DNA of 64,000 nt from Oceanimonas pelagia (GTDB taxonomy: Bacteria; Pseudomonadota; Gammaproteobacteria; Enterobacterales; Aeromonadaceae), in assembly GCF_030849025.1 (NCBI RefSeq), contig NZ_CP118224.1, forward strand, positions 2,725,001 through 2,789,000, written 5' to 3'. The notes under the pieces were generated by a model. That model did no database searches. It saw only the letters and a program-made list of their open reading frames with translations, and was not told where the DNA came from. Position 1 is the stretch's first letter, and each line of letters begins with the position of its first letter. Below, one piece after another: positions 18,900 to 26,690 of the stretch. Both the position numbers and the translations under genes were made by a program.

Positions 18900-20868
<1,969 letters not shown>

Positions 20869-20950: not shown

Positions 20951-22939
20951 TCAGTTACCACAATTTAGTACCTGGTAGTTCTCCACACCATTATGAATCT
21001 GCAGCACGCAAATACTCTCATCCAAATCCTCTTGGTCAAGCGTCAGCTGAAACGGGTTGCCACTGCCGCTATCACCATTAAACACAAAGTTGCTGTTGTT
21101 GCTGGTTTCGGAGAACATCAGGTTTACACTGGTCTCGGTAACGGGCACGGTACACTGAAAGGTGGCGGTAGCCACATCCGCTTCCTTGTTGAGGGTACAG
21201 TTACCGTTATTAACGGCCAGCTGTGTCTTGTTAAAGTCATTTTTGCTACACGGCTTGCTAGCCGAGGAGTTTTGGGAAGCCACTGTCAGGCACTGAACCT
21301 CCCCGCCAAAGGTAGTCGTGGCCGGTGAGCCAGGCAACACCGTCACGCCCAAACCGGCACTGTAGGCATTGCTGCCATCAAAGGAAGATATTGCCGGCTT
21401 GCCGGTCAGTCCGGTGTTATATCGGGTAAGACTGGCTACTACCTCGGGTGCCGGTGTGAGGGTGGTTTTGAGCGCCTTGACATAACCTCGCAGATAGGTG
21501 CCGAAATAATCGTTTTCCAAGTCGATAATGGTTTTGATAGGGTCATTACGAACCACCAGATAGTCAGCTCCTGTGACCGACCAGCTGGCAAGCAAAGTCA
21601 CATTCACCTCATTGAACGATACTCGGCTCAGCCAGTTGTCTTCACTGAAGTCCACCTTGTCAAGCAGCGTCTGAGGCAGCAAGTCCACATAAATGGCTCG
21701 GGCCGCAAATTGATAGGAATAGGACGCATAGAGTTGCTTCTTACTGTCAAAGGCCGCTGTTTCCACTGCCGTCTTGTTGCTTCCCAGCCAGGCTCTGAAG
21801 CTGTCCGGCTGATAAGTAGCCGTATGGGTGCCAGCCTTCATTTCCTCCACATAATCCTTTACAACATACTTGATATACTCCTGATACAGAGCCACATTAC
21901 CAGCGTTACTCAGATAACCGGGAGGAAAGACATTGAGAGCCACCAAGTTCCAGTCCGGCATGACACGATAATAGCCATCAATACGCAGCATCCGACAGGA
22001 CTCGTAATAGTTTCCCGATGAATGCACATGCCCCTTGTTAAACTGGTTGTAATTATCTTCAAGCAGGTTACTGGATGGCACATCATAATGATTGACGCAG
22101 CAAGTCTGGCAATCCGGGTTGTTGTTTTTACTGTCTCCCCAGAGTTTTGAAACAGGGTTCCCAGCTCTCCAGTAAATGCTCTGGGTCAATACCACCGGTG
22201 CCGCCGGCCTGGCCGTTAATTGTGTGCCATTTTTGCTCTCACAACTGCAATGCAAAGTCCGGCTATCTCCATTAATCAGGCTATTGCTGGAAGGATCAAA
22301 TATTACATTTTCGAAACTGACCACCACATCACCAGCATATTTACCAGTCTGAATATCGGGTGCCGGCTTGGTAGTCTCCTGCCTGACTCCCGTAGCAGGG
22401 TCCAACTCAATGGATATTATATCCGGGATGGATCCCGGAACATGAGATACTTTTGGCCCTCCCAATCCCAAGCCGATCTTATTTCCACTGCTACCAAAAG
22501 GACCACCACTTGCTGGTAGGTTAGGAGAAAGCAGTGACTCCAGGGAGAAACTCCGGGAGGAGCCGGCATCGGTCCAGTTAACGGTCACCACCACCTGCTT
22601 TTTGCCGGTGTTGTTATCGCTCGATGATGTGGTCTTCCAGGCGGAGCTGGCGCTGTTCCAGGCATAGGCCGTTACCGTCCAGCTGCGGGCATAGTCAATA
22701 CTATCCAGGCTTATGCTGTCGCTGCCGCCAACGATGGCATCAAACCCTGAGCGGGTCTGAAACCGGCGCAGTTCATCCAGTTTGGACTCCGCCAGCCGTA
22801 TAGCCACTTCCCGACTGCGACCGTCCCGGCTATATTCCAAGTAGGTCTTGTTCAACTGCAGCAAGGTACCGGCGGTGGCCGCCACAATCACAAAGGCCAG
22901 CATGACTTCAATCAGCCCAAATCCGTATTGCCGTTTCAT
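20951..22939 (-). CDS. Giant PilV-like minor pilin with ~600-residue C-terminal extension
   Basis: 662 residues, beginning MKRQYGFGLIEVMLAFVIVA: a class III prepilin signal with cleavage after G6 and Glu at mature position 5. Ordinary PilV-type minor pilins have 150-200 residues. The first ~140 look PilV-like (REVAIRLAESKLDELRRFQT). Beyond comes a Ser/Asn-rich linker, a region with CSC (231-233), CxxCC followed by HYD (277-286), C315 and His 230, 284, 304, 306, then a helical stretch (350-500), and a C-terminal beta-rich domain (540-662) with six Cys. Twelve cysteines in all suggest disulfides. It ends the fimU-pilW-pilX operon, 11 bases after pilX. It is probably a pilus-tip component, analogous in layout to CofB/TcpB. 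The extension matches no domain I recognise. Confidence 0.75.
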   Translation of the reverse strand: MKRQYGFGLIEVMLAFVIVAATAGTLLQLNKTYLEYSRDGRSREVAIRLAESKLDELRRFQTRSGFDAIVGGSDSISLDSIDYARSWTVTAYAWNSASSAWKTTSSSDNNTGKKQVVVTVNWTDAGSSRSFSLESLLSPNLPASGGPFGSSGNKIGLGLGGPKVSHVPGSIPDIISIELDPATGVRQETTKPAPDIQTGKYAGDVVVSFENVIFDPSSNSLINGDSRTLHCSCESKNGTQLTARPAAPVVLTQSIYWRAGNPVSKLWGDSKNNNPDCQTCCVNHYDVPSSNLLEDNYNQFNKGHVHSSGNYYESCRMLRIDGYYRVMPDWNLVALNVFPPGYLSNAGNVALYQEYIKYVVKDYVEEMKAGTHTATYQPDSFRAWLGSNKTAVETAAFDSKKQLYASYSYQFAARAIYVDLLPQTLLDKVDFSEDNWLSRVSFNEVNVTLLASWSVTGADYLVVRNDPIKTIIDLENDYFGTYLRGYVKALKTTLTPAPEVVASLTRYNTGLTGKPAISSFDGSNAYSAGLGVTVLPGSPATTTFGGEVQCLTVASQNSSASKPCSKNDFNKTQLAVNNGNCTLNKEADVATATFQCTVPVTETSVNLMFSETSNNSNFVFNGDSGSGNPFQLTLDQEDLDESICVLQIHNGVENYQVLNCGN

Positions 22940-22950
22940 GGCCTCTCCTG

Positions 22951-24105
22951 TTACCAGTCTTTCCAGCTACCCGGTATCGTGGTCAATCTACTGAACGGAT
23001 TGCCACCACCGCCACTACCACTGTTGCATCCCGCTATAGCACACATGACATCCTGATCATACACGGAGTCATAATTACCATTCGGCAAGTTAATCTCACT
23101 GTAATTAGAAATCATGGCACCATAAAACTTGGTATTACCGTTAAGTTTTACCTTATAATTTGTGCCATCACTAGTATTCGAGTCATACGCAAACAGCAGG
23201 CCATAAAAACTGCCATTCCCATTAACGGTCAATTCCATATCCTTGAGCACAAGAAGAACAGGTGCTGACTTTGTCCCCATCGGATCTAGTGTGCAGCTGG
23301 ATGCCCCTTCAACAATAAAAAAGCCGGCCTTTCCGTTTAATGCGTCACAAGATGTAAGAACTTCCGTTGCATACTTTTCAAGTGTTTCCCACGCTTTAGG
23401 GCCGTCAGAAATACCGAAAAGATAATCCACCAAGTCATCGGGAAACCCAATATCGCTTTCTATAATATCTTTCCCCTTTACGACTACTCCTCCTGCCGCT
23501 TTATAGCTGTAGGCATTATCCTTGGTGCATCCCGCTGATGAATGATATTCTTGCATGCCACAGGTCTGAGCACTCCCCCCTAAATTGACCACCTTGTCTG
23601 ACCAAACAGAAATTGGTATACCCGGCCCTCCCCCATTGGGATTCCCTACAATGGTAATATTACCATTAGTCGGCATGTTGCCTGCGATTACCATAGGGGC
23701 CGCTGGCCCGGAAAGTTGCGGGTTGAGAATGCTCCGTTCGGCCACCTGCACGCTGACAGTAGTACTAGCGCCATTGGCCAGAGTCGCTACCGACAGCAAC
23801 TGCCACACATTATCAACGGGCGAATTCGGCGTCATGGTAACCTGATAAGTAGCCGCCGACGACGACGTGTTCAGTGAGCCCGATACGCTGGTCGCCGCCG
23901 GATTAACCTTGAGCTGCGCCATGGCGTCGGCAATACCTTTTTCTGCCGCCGCCAGCGCGACCCGGTACTCGATTTCGTTAAGGGTAATGCGCTTGTCGGA
24001 AACCAGCACCTTGCCAATAAATACCGACACCGCCACCAGCATGGAGACCAGCACCAGAGTGATGGTGAGGGTAGCGAACCCCTTTTGCGTGTTAGTAGCC
24101 GTCAT
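22951..24105 (-). CDS. pilX: PilX-like minor pilin, large form
   Basis: 384 residues starting MTATNTQKGFATLTITLVLV. The prepilin motif KG|FATLT lacks the usual Glu at mature position 5, as is usual for PilX and GspK, the pilins thought to cap the tip. The body has beta-rich, Asn/Gly-rich sequence (NITIVGNPNGGGPG), six cysteines and a GSGGGG-containing C-terminal tail. Pseudomonas PilX has under 200 residues, so this is about twice that. It overlaps pilW by 14 bases. AT-rich: 23101-23160 has only 17 G/C in 60. Confidence 0.75.
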   Translation of the reverse strand: MTATNTQKGFATLTITLVLVSMLVAVSVFIGKVLVSDKRITLNEIEYRVALAAAEKGIADAMAQLKVNPAATSVSGSLNTSSSAATYQVTMTPNSPVDNVWQLLSVATLANGASTTVSVQVAERSILNPQLSGPAAPMVIAGNMPTNGNITIVGNPNGGGPGIPISVWSDKVVNLGGSAQTCGMQEYHSSAGCTKDNAYSYKAAGGVVVKGKDIIESDIGFPDDLVDYLFGISDGPKAWETLEKYATEVLTSCDALNGKAGFFIVEGASSCTLDPMGTKSAPVLLVLKDMELTVNGNGSFYGLLFAYDSNTSDGTNYKVKLNGNTKFYGAMISNYSEINLPNGNYDSVYDQDVMCAIAGCNSGSGGGGNPFSRLTTIPGSWKDW

Positions 24106-24763
24106 TTCTCAGTTTTATCTCCCGCTGCAGGCTCACCGACAACGCCGGCCGGTCAACATGAGAAGCACTCAGGGTAAGCCTGATGGTGCGCATACCGGTG
24201 GCACTGCCGCCGGACACCAGCTCAAAGCGTAGATCATCAATCGAGATTTCATCTTCCGCCAAAAACCTTGGCCAATTACTGCCAGCGTTACATAACGTAG
24301 AGATATCGGTGGCTTTATCATTGGAAGCATCGCACTTTCCTGCAGAGCTTGTACTTCGGCATTGCAGCTCTCTATCGGCAGCATCATAGCGATAAGCCTG
24401 AACCACATCTCCATCATCCCAATACTTGATGCGAATGCAATTCGGGGCAGATGCACCACTGGAAGCGTATAAATCATCGGCCATGGAAAACACCATGGCC
24501 TCGGCGGCGATCGCAGCCGAAGCATCACCATCCATGCCCTGAGCAGCACTGGGGTGATAGCCCGCCCGCTGAATATCCCGTACCATGATATCGGTCACCG
24601 ACTGCACATCCTGATTCAGCCGCGACAGCATCAATGTGGTATTGCCCGCCACAATCACCGAAGAAAACAGCGACAGGGCGCCGGCCACCACCAGCAGGCC
24701 GGCCACCAGCGACACCAGCATTTCCACCAGGGTCATGCCCTGCTGCCGATGAGCAACTAGCAT
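24092..24763 (-). CDS. pilW: PilW-like minor pilin
   Basis: 223 residues. The prepilin leader is MLVAHRQQG, with cleavage before MTLVEMLVSLVAG (Glu5 present). The PilW-family segment DVQSVTDIMVRDIQRAGYHP follows the helix. Three Cys cluster around RELQCRSTSSAGKCD and STLCNAG. It is a minor pilin of the type IV pilus, required with FimU, PilV and PilX to prime assembly. It overlaps fimU by 7 bases and pilX by 14. Confidence 0.82.
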   Translation of the reverse strand: MLVAHRQQGMTLVEMLVSLVAGLLVVAGALSLFSSVIVAGNTTLMLSRLNQDVQSVTDIMVRDIQRAGYHPSAAQGMDGDASAAIAAEAMVFSMADDLYASSGASAPNCIRIKYWDDGDVVQAYRYDAADRELQCRSTSSAGKCDASNDKATDISTLCNAGSNWPRFLAEDEISIDDLRFELVSGGSATGMRTIRLTLSASHVDRPALSVSLQREIKLRNDGY

Positions 24764-25257
24764 TCAGGGACTCCTATCAAATCATCAGCAGAGCAGGTTC
24801 TTATCCGGCCGGTATTGGAAGTTTTAACTTCCATTAAGTAATCGCCGTTAGAAAGCTGTACATTGCCACTGGAAAGGCTGCTGCGCCTCGGGCCAAAGGT
24901 CAGACGACTGGGGGAATAAGAAGCATTAAGCACCATGTACGGATAATTCTGACTACTGACGCTTTCAATAATATCGCCGGTGCAGTCATCGGAGTCATGC
25001 AACGCATAGCTCCAGTTTGCCGCGCCCGAGTTGGTAAAACACACCGTCACTTCCCGGTTGCGCTTGATGGCTTCGCTGCGGGCCAGTTGCAGATCGGCAT
25101 ACACCGCCATGCCGGCGCTGCGCACCGTATATTGCTCACGCAGGCTCTGAAAACCGGGCACCGCCAGGCTGGTCAGCACCGTCATCACCACCAGACCCAC
25201 CAGCAGTTCAATCAGGGTCAAACCACGCTGCATCTGAAGCGGGACTTTCTCATTCAT
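24757..25257 (-). CDS. fimU: GspH/FimT (FimU)-type minor pilin
   Basis: 166 residues from the ATG at 25257 (MNEKVPLQMQRG, cleavage after G12, then LTLIELLVGLV with Glu5). The C-terminal GspH domain signature LQLARSEAIKRNREVTVCF is clear. Longer in-frame starts (up to 25401) would run into the pilE promoter region. It is first gene of the minor pilin operon and divergent from pilE with a 76-base gap that must hold both promoters. The symbol is by position and GspH domain; FimT is the alternative name. Confidence 0.8.
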   Translation of the reverse strand: MNEKVPLQMQRGLTLIELLVGLVVMTVLTSLAVPGFQSLREQYTVRSAGMAVYADLQLARSEAIKRNREVTVCFTNSGAANWSYALHDSDDCTGDIIESVSSQNYPYMVLNASYSPSRLTFGPRRSSLSSGNVQLSNGDYLMEVKTSNTGRIRTCSADDLIGVPEC

Positions 25258-25333: not shown

Positions 25334-25720
25334 ATGCCAAAACATCTGGGGTTTACCCTGATTGAGTTGTTGATCACGGTGGCGGTACTGGCCATCATCA
25401 CCGCCGTGGCCTACCCCTCCTATTCCGCCTATATGCAAAAAAGCCGGCGCATCGAGGCCATACAAAGCCTGTATAAAATGCAGCTGGCCCAGGAAGACTG
25501 GCGTATTTCCCATCCCACTTATTCCAGTTCGGCAGCCGATTTAATCAGCCCGGTCAGCACCGACCACTATACTTTTGGCGCTTCGGTTTCCGGCAGCGGC
25601 TATACCCTGTCGGCCACCGCCAAGGGCAGCCAGTTGAACGACAAGGAGGGTGCCACAGCCTGCAGCCCGTTAACCCTCACCCGAGGCGGCAGCAAGGCGC
25701 CGGCCAGCTGCTGGCAATAA
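25334..25720 (+). CDS. pilE: PilE-like type IV pilin
   Basis: 128 residues from the ATG at 25334 with AAGGACA upstream. The leader is MPKHLG, then FTLIELLITVAVLAII with Glu5. The PilE-type segment AYMQKSRRIEAIQSLYKMQLAQEDW and two C-terminal Cys (ATACSPLTL, PASCWQ; the D-region disulfide) are typical of small PilE minor pilins next to ispH in Pseudomonas. It is transcribed away from fimU and converges on ispH at a shared terminator. Confidence 0.83.
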   Translation: MPKHLGFTLIELLITVAVLAIITAVAYPSYSAYMQKSRRIEAIQSLYKMQLAQEDWRISHPTYSSSAADLISPVSTDHYTFGASVSGSGYTLSATAKGSQLNDKEGATACSPLTLTRGGSKAPASCWQ

Positions 25721-25745: not shown

Positions 25746-26690
25746 TCAGGAAACCTGCTTTACCTTGAGCTCGGCGGGCACCTCAAACACAATGTTTTCT
25801 TCCCGTCCCGGGTGTTCCACCACGGTATTGCCGCCCAGCGACTGCAGGTGGGAGATTACCTCCTGCACCAGCACTTCCGGGGCCGAGGCGCCGGCGGTCA
25901 CGCCAATGCGGGCCACACTCTCAAGCCAGGCCGGCTCGATCATCTCGACACAGTCAATCAGGTGCGCCTGGGTGCCGATCTTCTCCGCCAGCTCCCGCAG
26001 CCGGTTGGAGTTGGACGAGTTGCGCGAGCCCACCACCAGCATCAGATCCACCTTGGCCGCCAGCTCCCGCACCGCATCCTGGCGGTTCTGGGTGGCATAG
26101 CAGATGTCATCCTTGCGCGGCCCTTCAATGGTGGGAAAACGCGCGCGCAGGGCGTCGATTACGTCCGAGGTTTCATCCACGCTCAGGGTGGTCTGGGTCA
26201 CGAAGGTGAGCTTGTCGGGGTGCTTCACCTCAAGGGCCGCCACGTCTTCCGGGTTTTCCACCAGATACATGCCGCCCTCGGCACTTTCATACTGCCCCAT
26301 AGTGCCTTCCACCTCGGGGTGGCCGGCATGGCCGATCAGAATGGTCTCAATACCCTTGCGGCTGGCCCTGTGCACTTCCATATGCACCTTGGTGACCAGC
26401 GGACAGGTAGCGTCAAACACCTTGAGACCACGCCGTTTGGCCTCTTCCCGCACCGCCTTGGACACCCCGTGGGCGGAGAAAATGACGATGTTGTCATCGG
26501 GCACCTGGTCCAGCTCGTCCACAAAAATGGCGCCCGCGTCCTTGAGCTTGTTGACCACATAGCGGTTGTGCACCACTTCATGGCGCACGTAGATGGGGGC
26601 GCCGAATTTTTCCAGGGCACTCTGCACTATGCTGATGGCCCGGTCCACACCGGCACAGAAGCCGCGGGGGTTGGCGAGCAGGATTTCCAT
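25746..26690 (-). CDS. ispH: 4-hydroxy-3-methylbut-2-enyl diphosphate reductase
   Basis: 314 residues. Last enzyme of the MEP isoprenoid pathway, with a 4Fe-4S cluster held by three cysteines seen in [25 protein letters not shown] and [11 protein letters not shown]. Catalytic AHGVS and SNSNRL are also present. It is last gene of the run ribF-ileS-lspA-fkpB-ispH, which is in the E. coli order, two bases after fkpB. Confidence 0.98.

What the first reader, a model, noticed from the sequence alone, without database searches (positions are those of the whole stretch)
20951..22939. 662-residue pilin with a novel cysteine-rich extension
A genuine type IV prepilin signal and PilV-like N-terminus is joined in one unbroken frame to about 500 additional residues carrying 12 cysteines. 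Notable are CSC at 231-233, CxxCCxxHxD at 277-286 (possible metal site), and a C-terminal six-Cys beta-rich domain after residue 540. Known minor pilins with large C-terminal modules (CofB, TcpB) sit at the pilus tip and recruit adhesins. The extension matches no domain I know, so it is a candidate tip adhesin or metal-binding module. This is the strongest candidate for a new system in the window.
Basis: partly seen in the sequence, partly recalled or inferred. Interest (0 to 1): 0.75.

Follow-up and report, generated by a model that had tools for sequence, protein, structure and literature searches.

The report
Swappable pilus-tip head on a pilin
One pilin gene of a bacterium in the Aeromonas family carries a large cysteine-rich extra module that relatives have swapped for other versions, lack altogether, or have replaced with a divergent form of PilY1 (the usual pilus-tip adhesin) at the same place, so it is predicted to be an interchangeable head at the pilus tip that likely touches surfaces or DNA.

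Summary

Own head resembles Oceanimonas (96/69%), own extension Oceanisphaera/Zobellella (about 60%, against 30-35%); the crossover spans the predicted linker. Five of 23 congeners have a short PilV instead. In Aeromonas, 17 genomes have the extension and none of these the divergent PilY1; all 20 without it carry that PilY1 beside ispH or nadE.

Best reading: a modular PilV-position pilin likely displaying an exchangeable tip head, comparable in role to PilY1. Tip location and ligand are untested. Against simple replacement: 10 of the 17 Aeromonas keep another PilY1, and order-wide PilY1 is not rarer with the core (8 of 13 against 60 of 106). A new variant of the known modular pilins.

The parts
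20951..22939 (-). 662-aa modular pilin at the PilV position of the operon (the finding)
22520..22921 (-). mature pilin head, residues 7-140; mature F1 and E5 are residues 7 and 11
22424..22519 (-). predicted flexible linker, residues 141-172; the mosaic crossover lies between about 120 and 180
   Evidence: pLDDT under 50; sliding identity
21956..22423 (-). conserved cysteine core, residues 173-328: CSC 231-233, CxxCCxxHxD 277-286, C315-R316
   Evidence: invariant (27 of 27) and, in sets partly chosen by the motif; fold barely tested
22082..22111 (-). CQTCCVNHYD motif, residues 277-286
21320..21955 (-). Big_2-like Ig domain (aligned range about 330-538), apparently interrupted by a mostly helical insertion (about 340-440)
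20954..21319 (-). optional C-terminal Ig-like domain, residues 541-662, six Cys
22951..24105 (-). PilX-like minor pilin, 384 aa, Thr instead of Glu at mature position 5
   Evidence: PF14341 29.2 bits, cut-off 25.5; sequence
24092..24763 (-). PilW-like minor pilin, overlaps PilX and FimT
   Evidence: PRK10557 36.9 bits, cut-off 120
24757..25239 (-). FimT/GspH-like minor pilin with GRIR near its C-terminus (start taken at an internal ATG before the prepilin motif)
   Evidence: PF12019 58.5 bits; motif
25334..25720 (+). PilE-like pilin, divergent, ComP_DUS Pfam match (start taken at an internal ATG)
   Evidence: E 1.2e-18
25746..26690 (-). ispH, conserved flank
19249..20868 (-). nadE, conserved flank

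Best explanation
The 662-residue protein is encoded at the PilV position of a FimT-PilW-PilX-PilV operon that lacks PilY1, and its roughly 500-residue extension is predicted to be displayed at the pilus tip as an exchangeable ligand-binding head, likely doing what PilY1 does in other type IV pili. Shown here: the prepilin start and head, the operon order, no PilY1 match in this genome, the conserved Cys core, the swapping and the presence/absence of the module, and its alternation with a PilY1 cassette in Aeromonas. Inferred: the four minor pilins assemble a tip complex (PilX lacking Glu5 as cap, PilV next, as modelled for V. cholerae in PMC12040237); the extension protrudes through a flexible linker; the Cys core is held by disulfides; the Ig-like domains act as stalk or binding surface; the ligand (surface polymer, neighbouring cell or DNA) differs between allele types, which would be why the module is exchanged.
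For: (1) Mosaic: own head against Oceanimonas GK1/CHS3-5 96% (res 7-60) and 69% (61-140), extension 30-35% and C-term 15-16%; against five Oceanisphaera/Zobellella-type relatives (P0002-P0006) head 61-140 40-43%, extension 58-64%, C-term 47-52%; the crossover lies between about 120 and 180 and spans the low-confidence linker 141-172. AU tests on 21 of the 62 homologs: head data reject the extension-defined group, p 0.0005; extension data reject an Oceanimonas clade, p 0.00013. (2) In G432 (same genus) rnr, luxS, nadE, ispH, ileS are 95-97% identical, the extension 30%. (3) Same genus group, 23 genomes: extension in 18; all 5 without it have PilE-FimT-PilW-PilX and a short PilV matching only the head (37-54%) between ispH and nadE; PilY1 in 0 of 23. 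(4) Aeromonas, 37 genomes: extension in 17; the 20 without it all carry a divergent PilY1 beside ispH or nadE (both flanks clear in 14, one in 5, one with nadE and a partial ispH match), and 0 of 17 with the extension do; the state changes 11 times on a nadE tree of 33, about as for shuffled labels (mean 11.2). (5) Gene order conserved in most Gamma- and Betaproteobacterial loci seen. (6) Modular pilins act as adhesins, modelled at the tip, in S. sanguinis (PMC8179133, passages read).
Against: Nothing here places it at the tip, and binding is not shown. Ten of 17 Aeromonas genomes with the extension also have another, strong PilY1, in 9 of them in tandem at this locus (G552's is on another contig), and 4 of 4 fetched loci of another family (L114-L117; PilY1 confirmed by Pfam in the three scanned) carry a PilY1 set beside it, so it is not simply a PilY1 replacement. 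Across the order PilY1 is as common with the core (8 of 13) as without (60 of 106); in the class sample it is 2 of 5 with and 220 of 364 without. Five congeners have neither the extension nor PilY1, so the function is dispensable. NCBIfam calls it neither PilV nor GspI (13.4 and 17.6 bits, cut-offs 52.2 and 44.35). nadE and ispH lie beside the cassette and may have moved with it, so the switch counts are rough.
Confidence: 0.6

Rival explanations
1. The operon builds the tip of a DNA-uptake (competence) pilus and the extension helps capture or hold DNA rather than stick to surfaces.
For: Own FimT ends in GRIR, the GRxR DNA-binding motif of FimT (PMC8897410, passages read); G[RK]x[RK] lies in the last 45 residues of 23 of 39 FimT neighbours, against 4.5% in shuffles, 8 of 41 PilW and 0 of 39 PilX. 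V. cholerae competence pili use a FimT-PilW-PilX-PilV operon (PMC13249403, passages read). A DNA role is discussed for the extra module of the modular pilin ComZ (PMC8179133, passage read).
Against: The module is acidic: own net -8, pI 5.2; pI 7.0 or below in 50 of 51 proteins (module ends set by simple patterns, so rough). 16 of 39 FimT neighbours lack the motif, including 4 of 5 named Oceanisphaera/Zobellella loci. DNA binding alone would not obviously call for allele exchange of this extent.
Confidence: 0.17
2. The module is varied mainly to escape pilus-specific phages or predators; its binding role is secondary.
For: Diversity is concentrated in the extension (30%) and PilX (54%) while flanks are 95-97% (G432); allele types change 6 times among 16 genomes.
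Against: No phage or receptor evidence; six invariant Cys plus H and D argue for a conserved function under the variation. The 6 changes are fewer than for shuffled types (mean 8.4), mainly because the genomes without extension branch early.
Confidence: 0.1
3. A metal- or redox-sensing module: CxC, CxxCC, H and D bind a metal at the tip.
For: CxC, CxxCCxxHxD and C-R invariant in 27 of 27 homologs.
Against: Six invariant cysteines in an exported protein fit three disulfides; no metalloprotein match, though the core was barely tested; a single Metal_CEHH hit at E 0.098 in 1 of 36.
Confidence: 0.1
4. Assembly error or chance fusion of two genes.
For: None found.
Against: 62 homologs, many full length, in different genomes; conserved order; the genome is one contig of 3.59 Mb.
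Confidence: 0.01

Closest known systems
Modular type IV pilins (S. sanguinis PilB/PilC; PMC8179133, passages read)
   Same: Prepilin N-terminus, pilin head, short linker, bulky C-terminal module; PilB's vWA module is an adhesin and PilB is modelled at the tip
   Different: Different module (Cys core plus Ig-like domains; no vWA or lectin match); sits in a FimT-PilW-PilX-PilV set; exchanged and missing at one locus
V. cholerae competence FimT-PilW-PilX-PilV operon (VC0858-0861; PMC13249403, PMC12040237, passages read)
   Same: Same gene order, overlapping genes, PilX without Glu5, no PilY1 among the four genes, FimT DNA-binding motif in the own copy
   Different: Here PilV carries about 500 extra residues; the size of V. 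cholerae PilV was not compared in any call
PilY1/PilC tip adhesin (PF05567)
   Same: Comparable predicted role; a divergent PilY1 lies at the ispH-nadE locus in the 20 Aeromonas genomes without the extension
   Different: Not a pilin; beta-propeller; no sequence or profile relation found
Acinetobacter exchangeable pilV-fimU-comC tip cassette (PMC10374093, passages read)
   Same: A tip cassette replaced within a genus, described there as an interchangeable tool head
   Different: There the head is ComC/PilY1; here it is part of a pilin, and the exchange breaks inside the gene
E. coli K-12 ppdA-ppdB-ygdB-ppdC
   Same: Four-gene minor pilin order without PilY1 beside it; own FimT and PilW score the PRK10506 and PRK10557 models (recalled as PpdA and PpdB) below their cut-offs
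   Different: The last gene, ppdC, is only 324 bp
CofB/TcpB type IVb minor pilins
   Same: Minor pilin with large C-terminal modules (recalled; CofB tip trimer in a PMC10191384 passage)
   Different: Type IVb systems with fewer minor pilins; no PDB chain matched the own sequence up to E 1

Membership tests
Modular type IV pilin | Class III signal / N-methylation motif at the N-terminus | tested here: met
   PF07963 22.7 bits, cut-off 21.2
Modular type IV pilin | Extra C-terminal module that is a domain not specific to type IV pili | tested here: inconclusive
Modular type IV pilin | Module separable from the pilin head | tested here: met
   mosaic and absence at the same locus
PilV (TIGR02523) | Curated score 52.2 bits | tested here: not met
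   13.4 bits
GspI (TIGR01707) | Curated score 44.35 bits | tested here: not met
   17.6 bits
FimT-PilW-PilX-PilV tip set | Gene order FimT-PilW-PilX-PilV with PilE beside it | tested here: met
FimT-PilW-PilX-PilV tip set | Capping PilX lacks Glu5 | tested here: met
   own sequence after the cleavage Gly: FATLT
FimT-PilW-PilX-PilV tip set | Assembly into a pilus-tip complex | not testable with these tools
   needs pull-downs, cryo-ET or complex modelling
PilY1 (PF05567) | C-terminal beta-propeller domain | tested here: not met
   no hit up to E 1; hhalign probability 0.1% against two PilY1 sequences
Big_2 Ig domain (PF02368) | Curated sequence score | tested here: not met
   no hit in own protein; 1 of 36 relatives at E 0.005
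Big_2 Ig domain (PF02368) | Ig-like Big_2 fold | tested here: inconclusive
CofB/TcpB | Trimeric tip assembly, type IVb machinery | not tested
   -

The most novel reading that the evidence does not exclude
A previously undescribed family of pilin-borne tip heads (CxC/CxxCCxxHxD core plus Ig-like domains) that forms a PilY1-independent class of type IV pilus tip and is traded as a cassette between species, in alternation with PilY1 sets at one chromosomal tip-switch locus.
Probability: 0.45. Interest if true: 0.76.

Novelty: new variant of a known kind. Interest (0 to 1): 0.6.

Why it matters
How type IV pili change what they touch is an open question. PilY1 is the usual tip-located effector of type IVa pili in diderms (PMC10191384, passages read), yet 147 of 369 genomes of this class sample gave no PilY1 match. 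Here one locus shows natural states side by side: short PilV without PilY1, PilV with a large head, a divergent PilY1 set, and a large head beside another PilY1 set. That makes the question testable: five congeners without the extension are ready-made comparisons, and the allele types predict ligand differences. If right, the tip head can sit on a pilin instead of on PilY1 and be swapped by recombination around the linker.

Tried and rejected
Assembly fusion: rejected. PilY1 or a hidden propeller: rejected. PDB relative by sequence: none up to E 1. Global PilY1 replacement: not supported at order level (8 of 13 against 60 of 106), and in Aeromonas 10 of 17 keep another PilY1. Co-travel of PilX with the extension allele: not seen (PilX 47-60% whatever the extension type, 10 loci). 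DNA binding by charge: the module is acidic. The first profile search matched 216 of 369 genomes, nearly all through the shared pilin N-terminus; the core-only profile gave 5 of 369. The viral structure library gave no hit at E 0.001 or better. The genome-contig scan used one peptide pattern, so its 59 loci (41 with the motif) are not a census. PilY1 search: the 14 control genomes stayed silent, so the class search (222 of 369 ring) served as control. Literature: (PMC library only) listed no paper that I recognised as describing this module; most listed papers were not opened. PMC11124393 (passages and a table read) lists AHA_0696 of A. hydrophila as an unidentified putative type IV pilin at what looks like this position by gene order; not checked by sequence.

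Rows dropped: A1 used 27 of 62 homologs; A3 34 loci plus the window and A5 35 loci plus the window; the trees used 21 of 62; nadE and ispH trees used 33 and 23 of 37 Aeromonas genomes (the gene had to lie in the fetched stretch); one search found FimT at the expected distance in 39 loci, PilW in 41, PilX in 39.

Full report
WHAT IS THERE. The frame 20951-22939 on the minus strand encodes 662 residues without a break. The prepilin motif passes the Pfam cut-off (22.7 against 21.2 bits). Twelve cysteines lie after the pilin head. The gene is the last of FimT (24757-25239), PilW (24092-24763), PilX (22951-24105) and this gene; PilE (25334-25720) points the other way, with ispH beyond it, and nadE follows the operon. 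FimT overlaps PilW and PilW overlaps PilX by a few bases; the gap before the last gene is 11 bases (coordinates).

CONSERVATION. The protein search gave 62 homologs; those named to genus come from Oceanimonas, Oceanisphaera, Zobellella and Aeromonas. In 27 of them, chosen by hand for diversity, C231, C233, C277, C280, C281, H284, D286, C315 and R316 do not vary. A core-only profile finds the module in 5 of 369 genomes of the class and 13 of 119 of the order, so it is sparse but spread: named relatives include Alteromonas, Pseudidiomarina, Thiobacillus and a Methylococcaceae MAG (one peptide pattern, not a census). The order PilE, FimT, PilW, PilX, large PilV recurs in most of these loci (some are cut by contig ends, L044's PilX was not recognised by the phmmer search, and no PilE was seen near L069).

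THE EXTENSION IS A SWAPPED MODULE. In windows of 30 residues, identity to Oceanimonas GK1 falls from 93-96% (windows from 1-31) to 17-25% (from 181-226), while identity to Zobellella aerophila rises from 32-36% (from 61-91) to 57-76% (from 136-226); between about 120 and 180 both are fairly high, so the crossover lies somewhere there. Trees of the two parts, built from 21 of the 62 homologs, conflict: the head data reject the group defined by the extension (p 0.0005) and the extension data reject an Oceanimonas clade (p 0.00013; the groups were named from identity tables and organism names). In G432, flanking rnr, luxS, nadE, ispH and ileS are 95-97% identical to ours, the pilin head 80%, PilX 54%, and the extension 30%. 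G573, whose flanks are less alike (82-95%), shares the extension at 63%. Three allele types occur (A, B, C, labels mine). On a nadE tree of 16 genomes the states A, B, C and short need 6 changes; shuffled labels need 8.4 on average, so there is some kinship signal, mainly because the short forms branch early.

NATURAL ABSENCE. In the 23 genomes of the same genus group, 18 have the extension. I fetched the ispH locus of the other five: all five keep PilE, FimT, PilW, PilX and a PilV frame of 154-164 codons that matches only the head (37-54%). None of the 23 has a PilY1 match. The genus group merges NCBI's Oceanimonas, Oceanisphaera and Zobellella, judged by matching contig lengths.

ALTERNATION WITH PILY1. 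Of 37 genomes of the Aeromonas group (named from contig lengths shared), 17 have the extension and 20 do not. All 20 without it carry a divergent PilY1 (PF05567 E 5e-5 to 1e-14; 56-91% identical to that of G558), and none of the 17 with it does: 10 have a strong, different PilY1 (E 4e-59 or better) and 7 have none (Fisher p 6e-11, which ignores kinship). The divergent PilY1 lies beside ispH or nadE in all 20: both are clear in the fetched stretch in 14, one only in 5, and one has nadE plus a partial ispH match. On a nadE tree of 33 genomes the state changes 11 times, as often as for shuffled labels (11.2); on an ispH tree of 23 it changes 5 times (shuffled 6.2). nadE and ispH sit beside the cassette, so they may have moved with it. 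In 9 of the 10 genomes with both, the strong PilY1 sits in tandem at this locus (L120, L195-L197, L199-L201, L209, L210); in L070 and L083, copies of two of these loci, it comes with PilW- and, in L070, GspH- and PilX-type genes. In G552 it lies on another contig. A PilY1-sized gene with pilin neighbours also stands beside the large-PilV set in 4 of 4 fetched loci of another family (L114-L117; PF05567 confirmed in the three scanned, and in all four genomes). Thus the large-PilV set is a self-contained alternative that can stand instead of, or beside, PilY1 sets.

FUNCTION. The operon has the order of the V. cholerae competence set, whose four minor pilins are modelled as the tip complex and promote assembly (PMC13249403, PMC12040237; passages read). 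PilX here lacks Glu5, as a capping subunit should. The own FimT carries GRIR near its end, the DNA-binding motif of FimT (PMC8897410, passages read), and 23 of 39 neighbours have such a motif. The genome has one secretin over the PilQ cut-off, so the set probably serves the ordinary type IVa machine; this is inference. From these data I commit to an exchangeable tip head, with a DNA-uptake function as the leading rival.

COMPARISON. Modular pilins are a described kind (264 architectures in PMC8179133, passages read). An exchangeable tip cassette is described for Acinetobacter, where the head is ComC/PilY1 (PMC10374093, passages read). What appears new here is the module family, its exchange within a pilin gene, and its alternation with PilY1 at one locus; the literature searches are named under Tried and rejected.

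LIMITS. No experiment. The ligand is unknown. Several counts come from draft genomes, and the two structural calls for Ig-like domains are moderate in score.

Noticed in passing
L041, L048, L049 (genome G060): One genome holds three PilE/FimT-PilW-PilX-PilV clusters, each with a large PilV frame (721, 792, 724 codons); only one has the CxxCC core. The other two are 30% identical to each other and have no Pfam domain besides N_methyl over cut-off.
   Followed up: partly
L060, downstream of the large PilV: A second minor pilin cluster (PilX-, PilW- and FimT-like on the opposite strand, then a PilE-like pilin) lies beside the first in Alteromonas aestuariivivens.
   Followed up: no
window 25334-25720: The divergent PilE matches Pfam ComP_DUS (E 1.2e-18), named for a DNA uptake sequence receptor.
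   Followed up: no
L045 (G249:C1:520842 region): A 779-codon frame starts like this pilin (E 3.7e-17) but gave no hit to the core profile: another large pilin extension.
   Followed up: no
L050, L051, L052, L054: Betaproteobacterial and groundwater relatives have frames of 1014-1168 codons with longer C-terminal parts carrying 6 to 16 cysteines.
   Followed up: no
window 22951-24105: PilX is also very variable (47-60% among 10 congener loci whose flanks are 82-97%), as if it too is exposed or co-adapted.
   Followed up: partly
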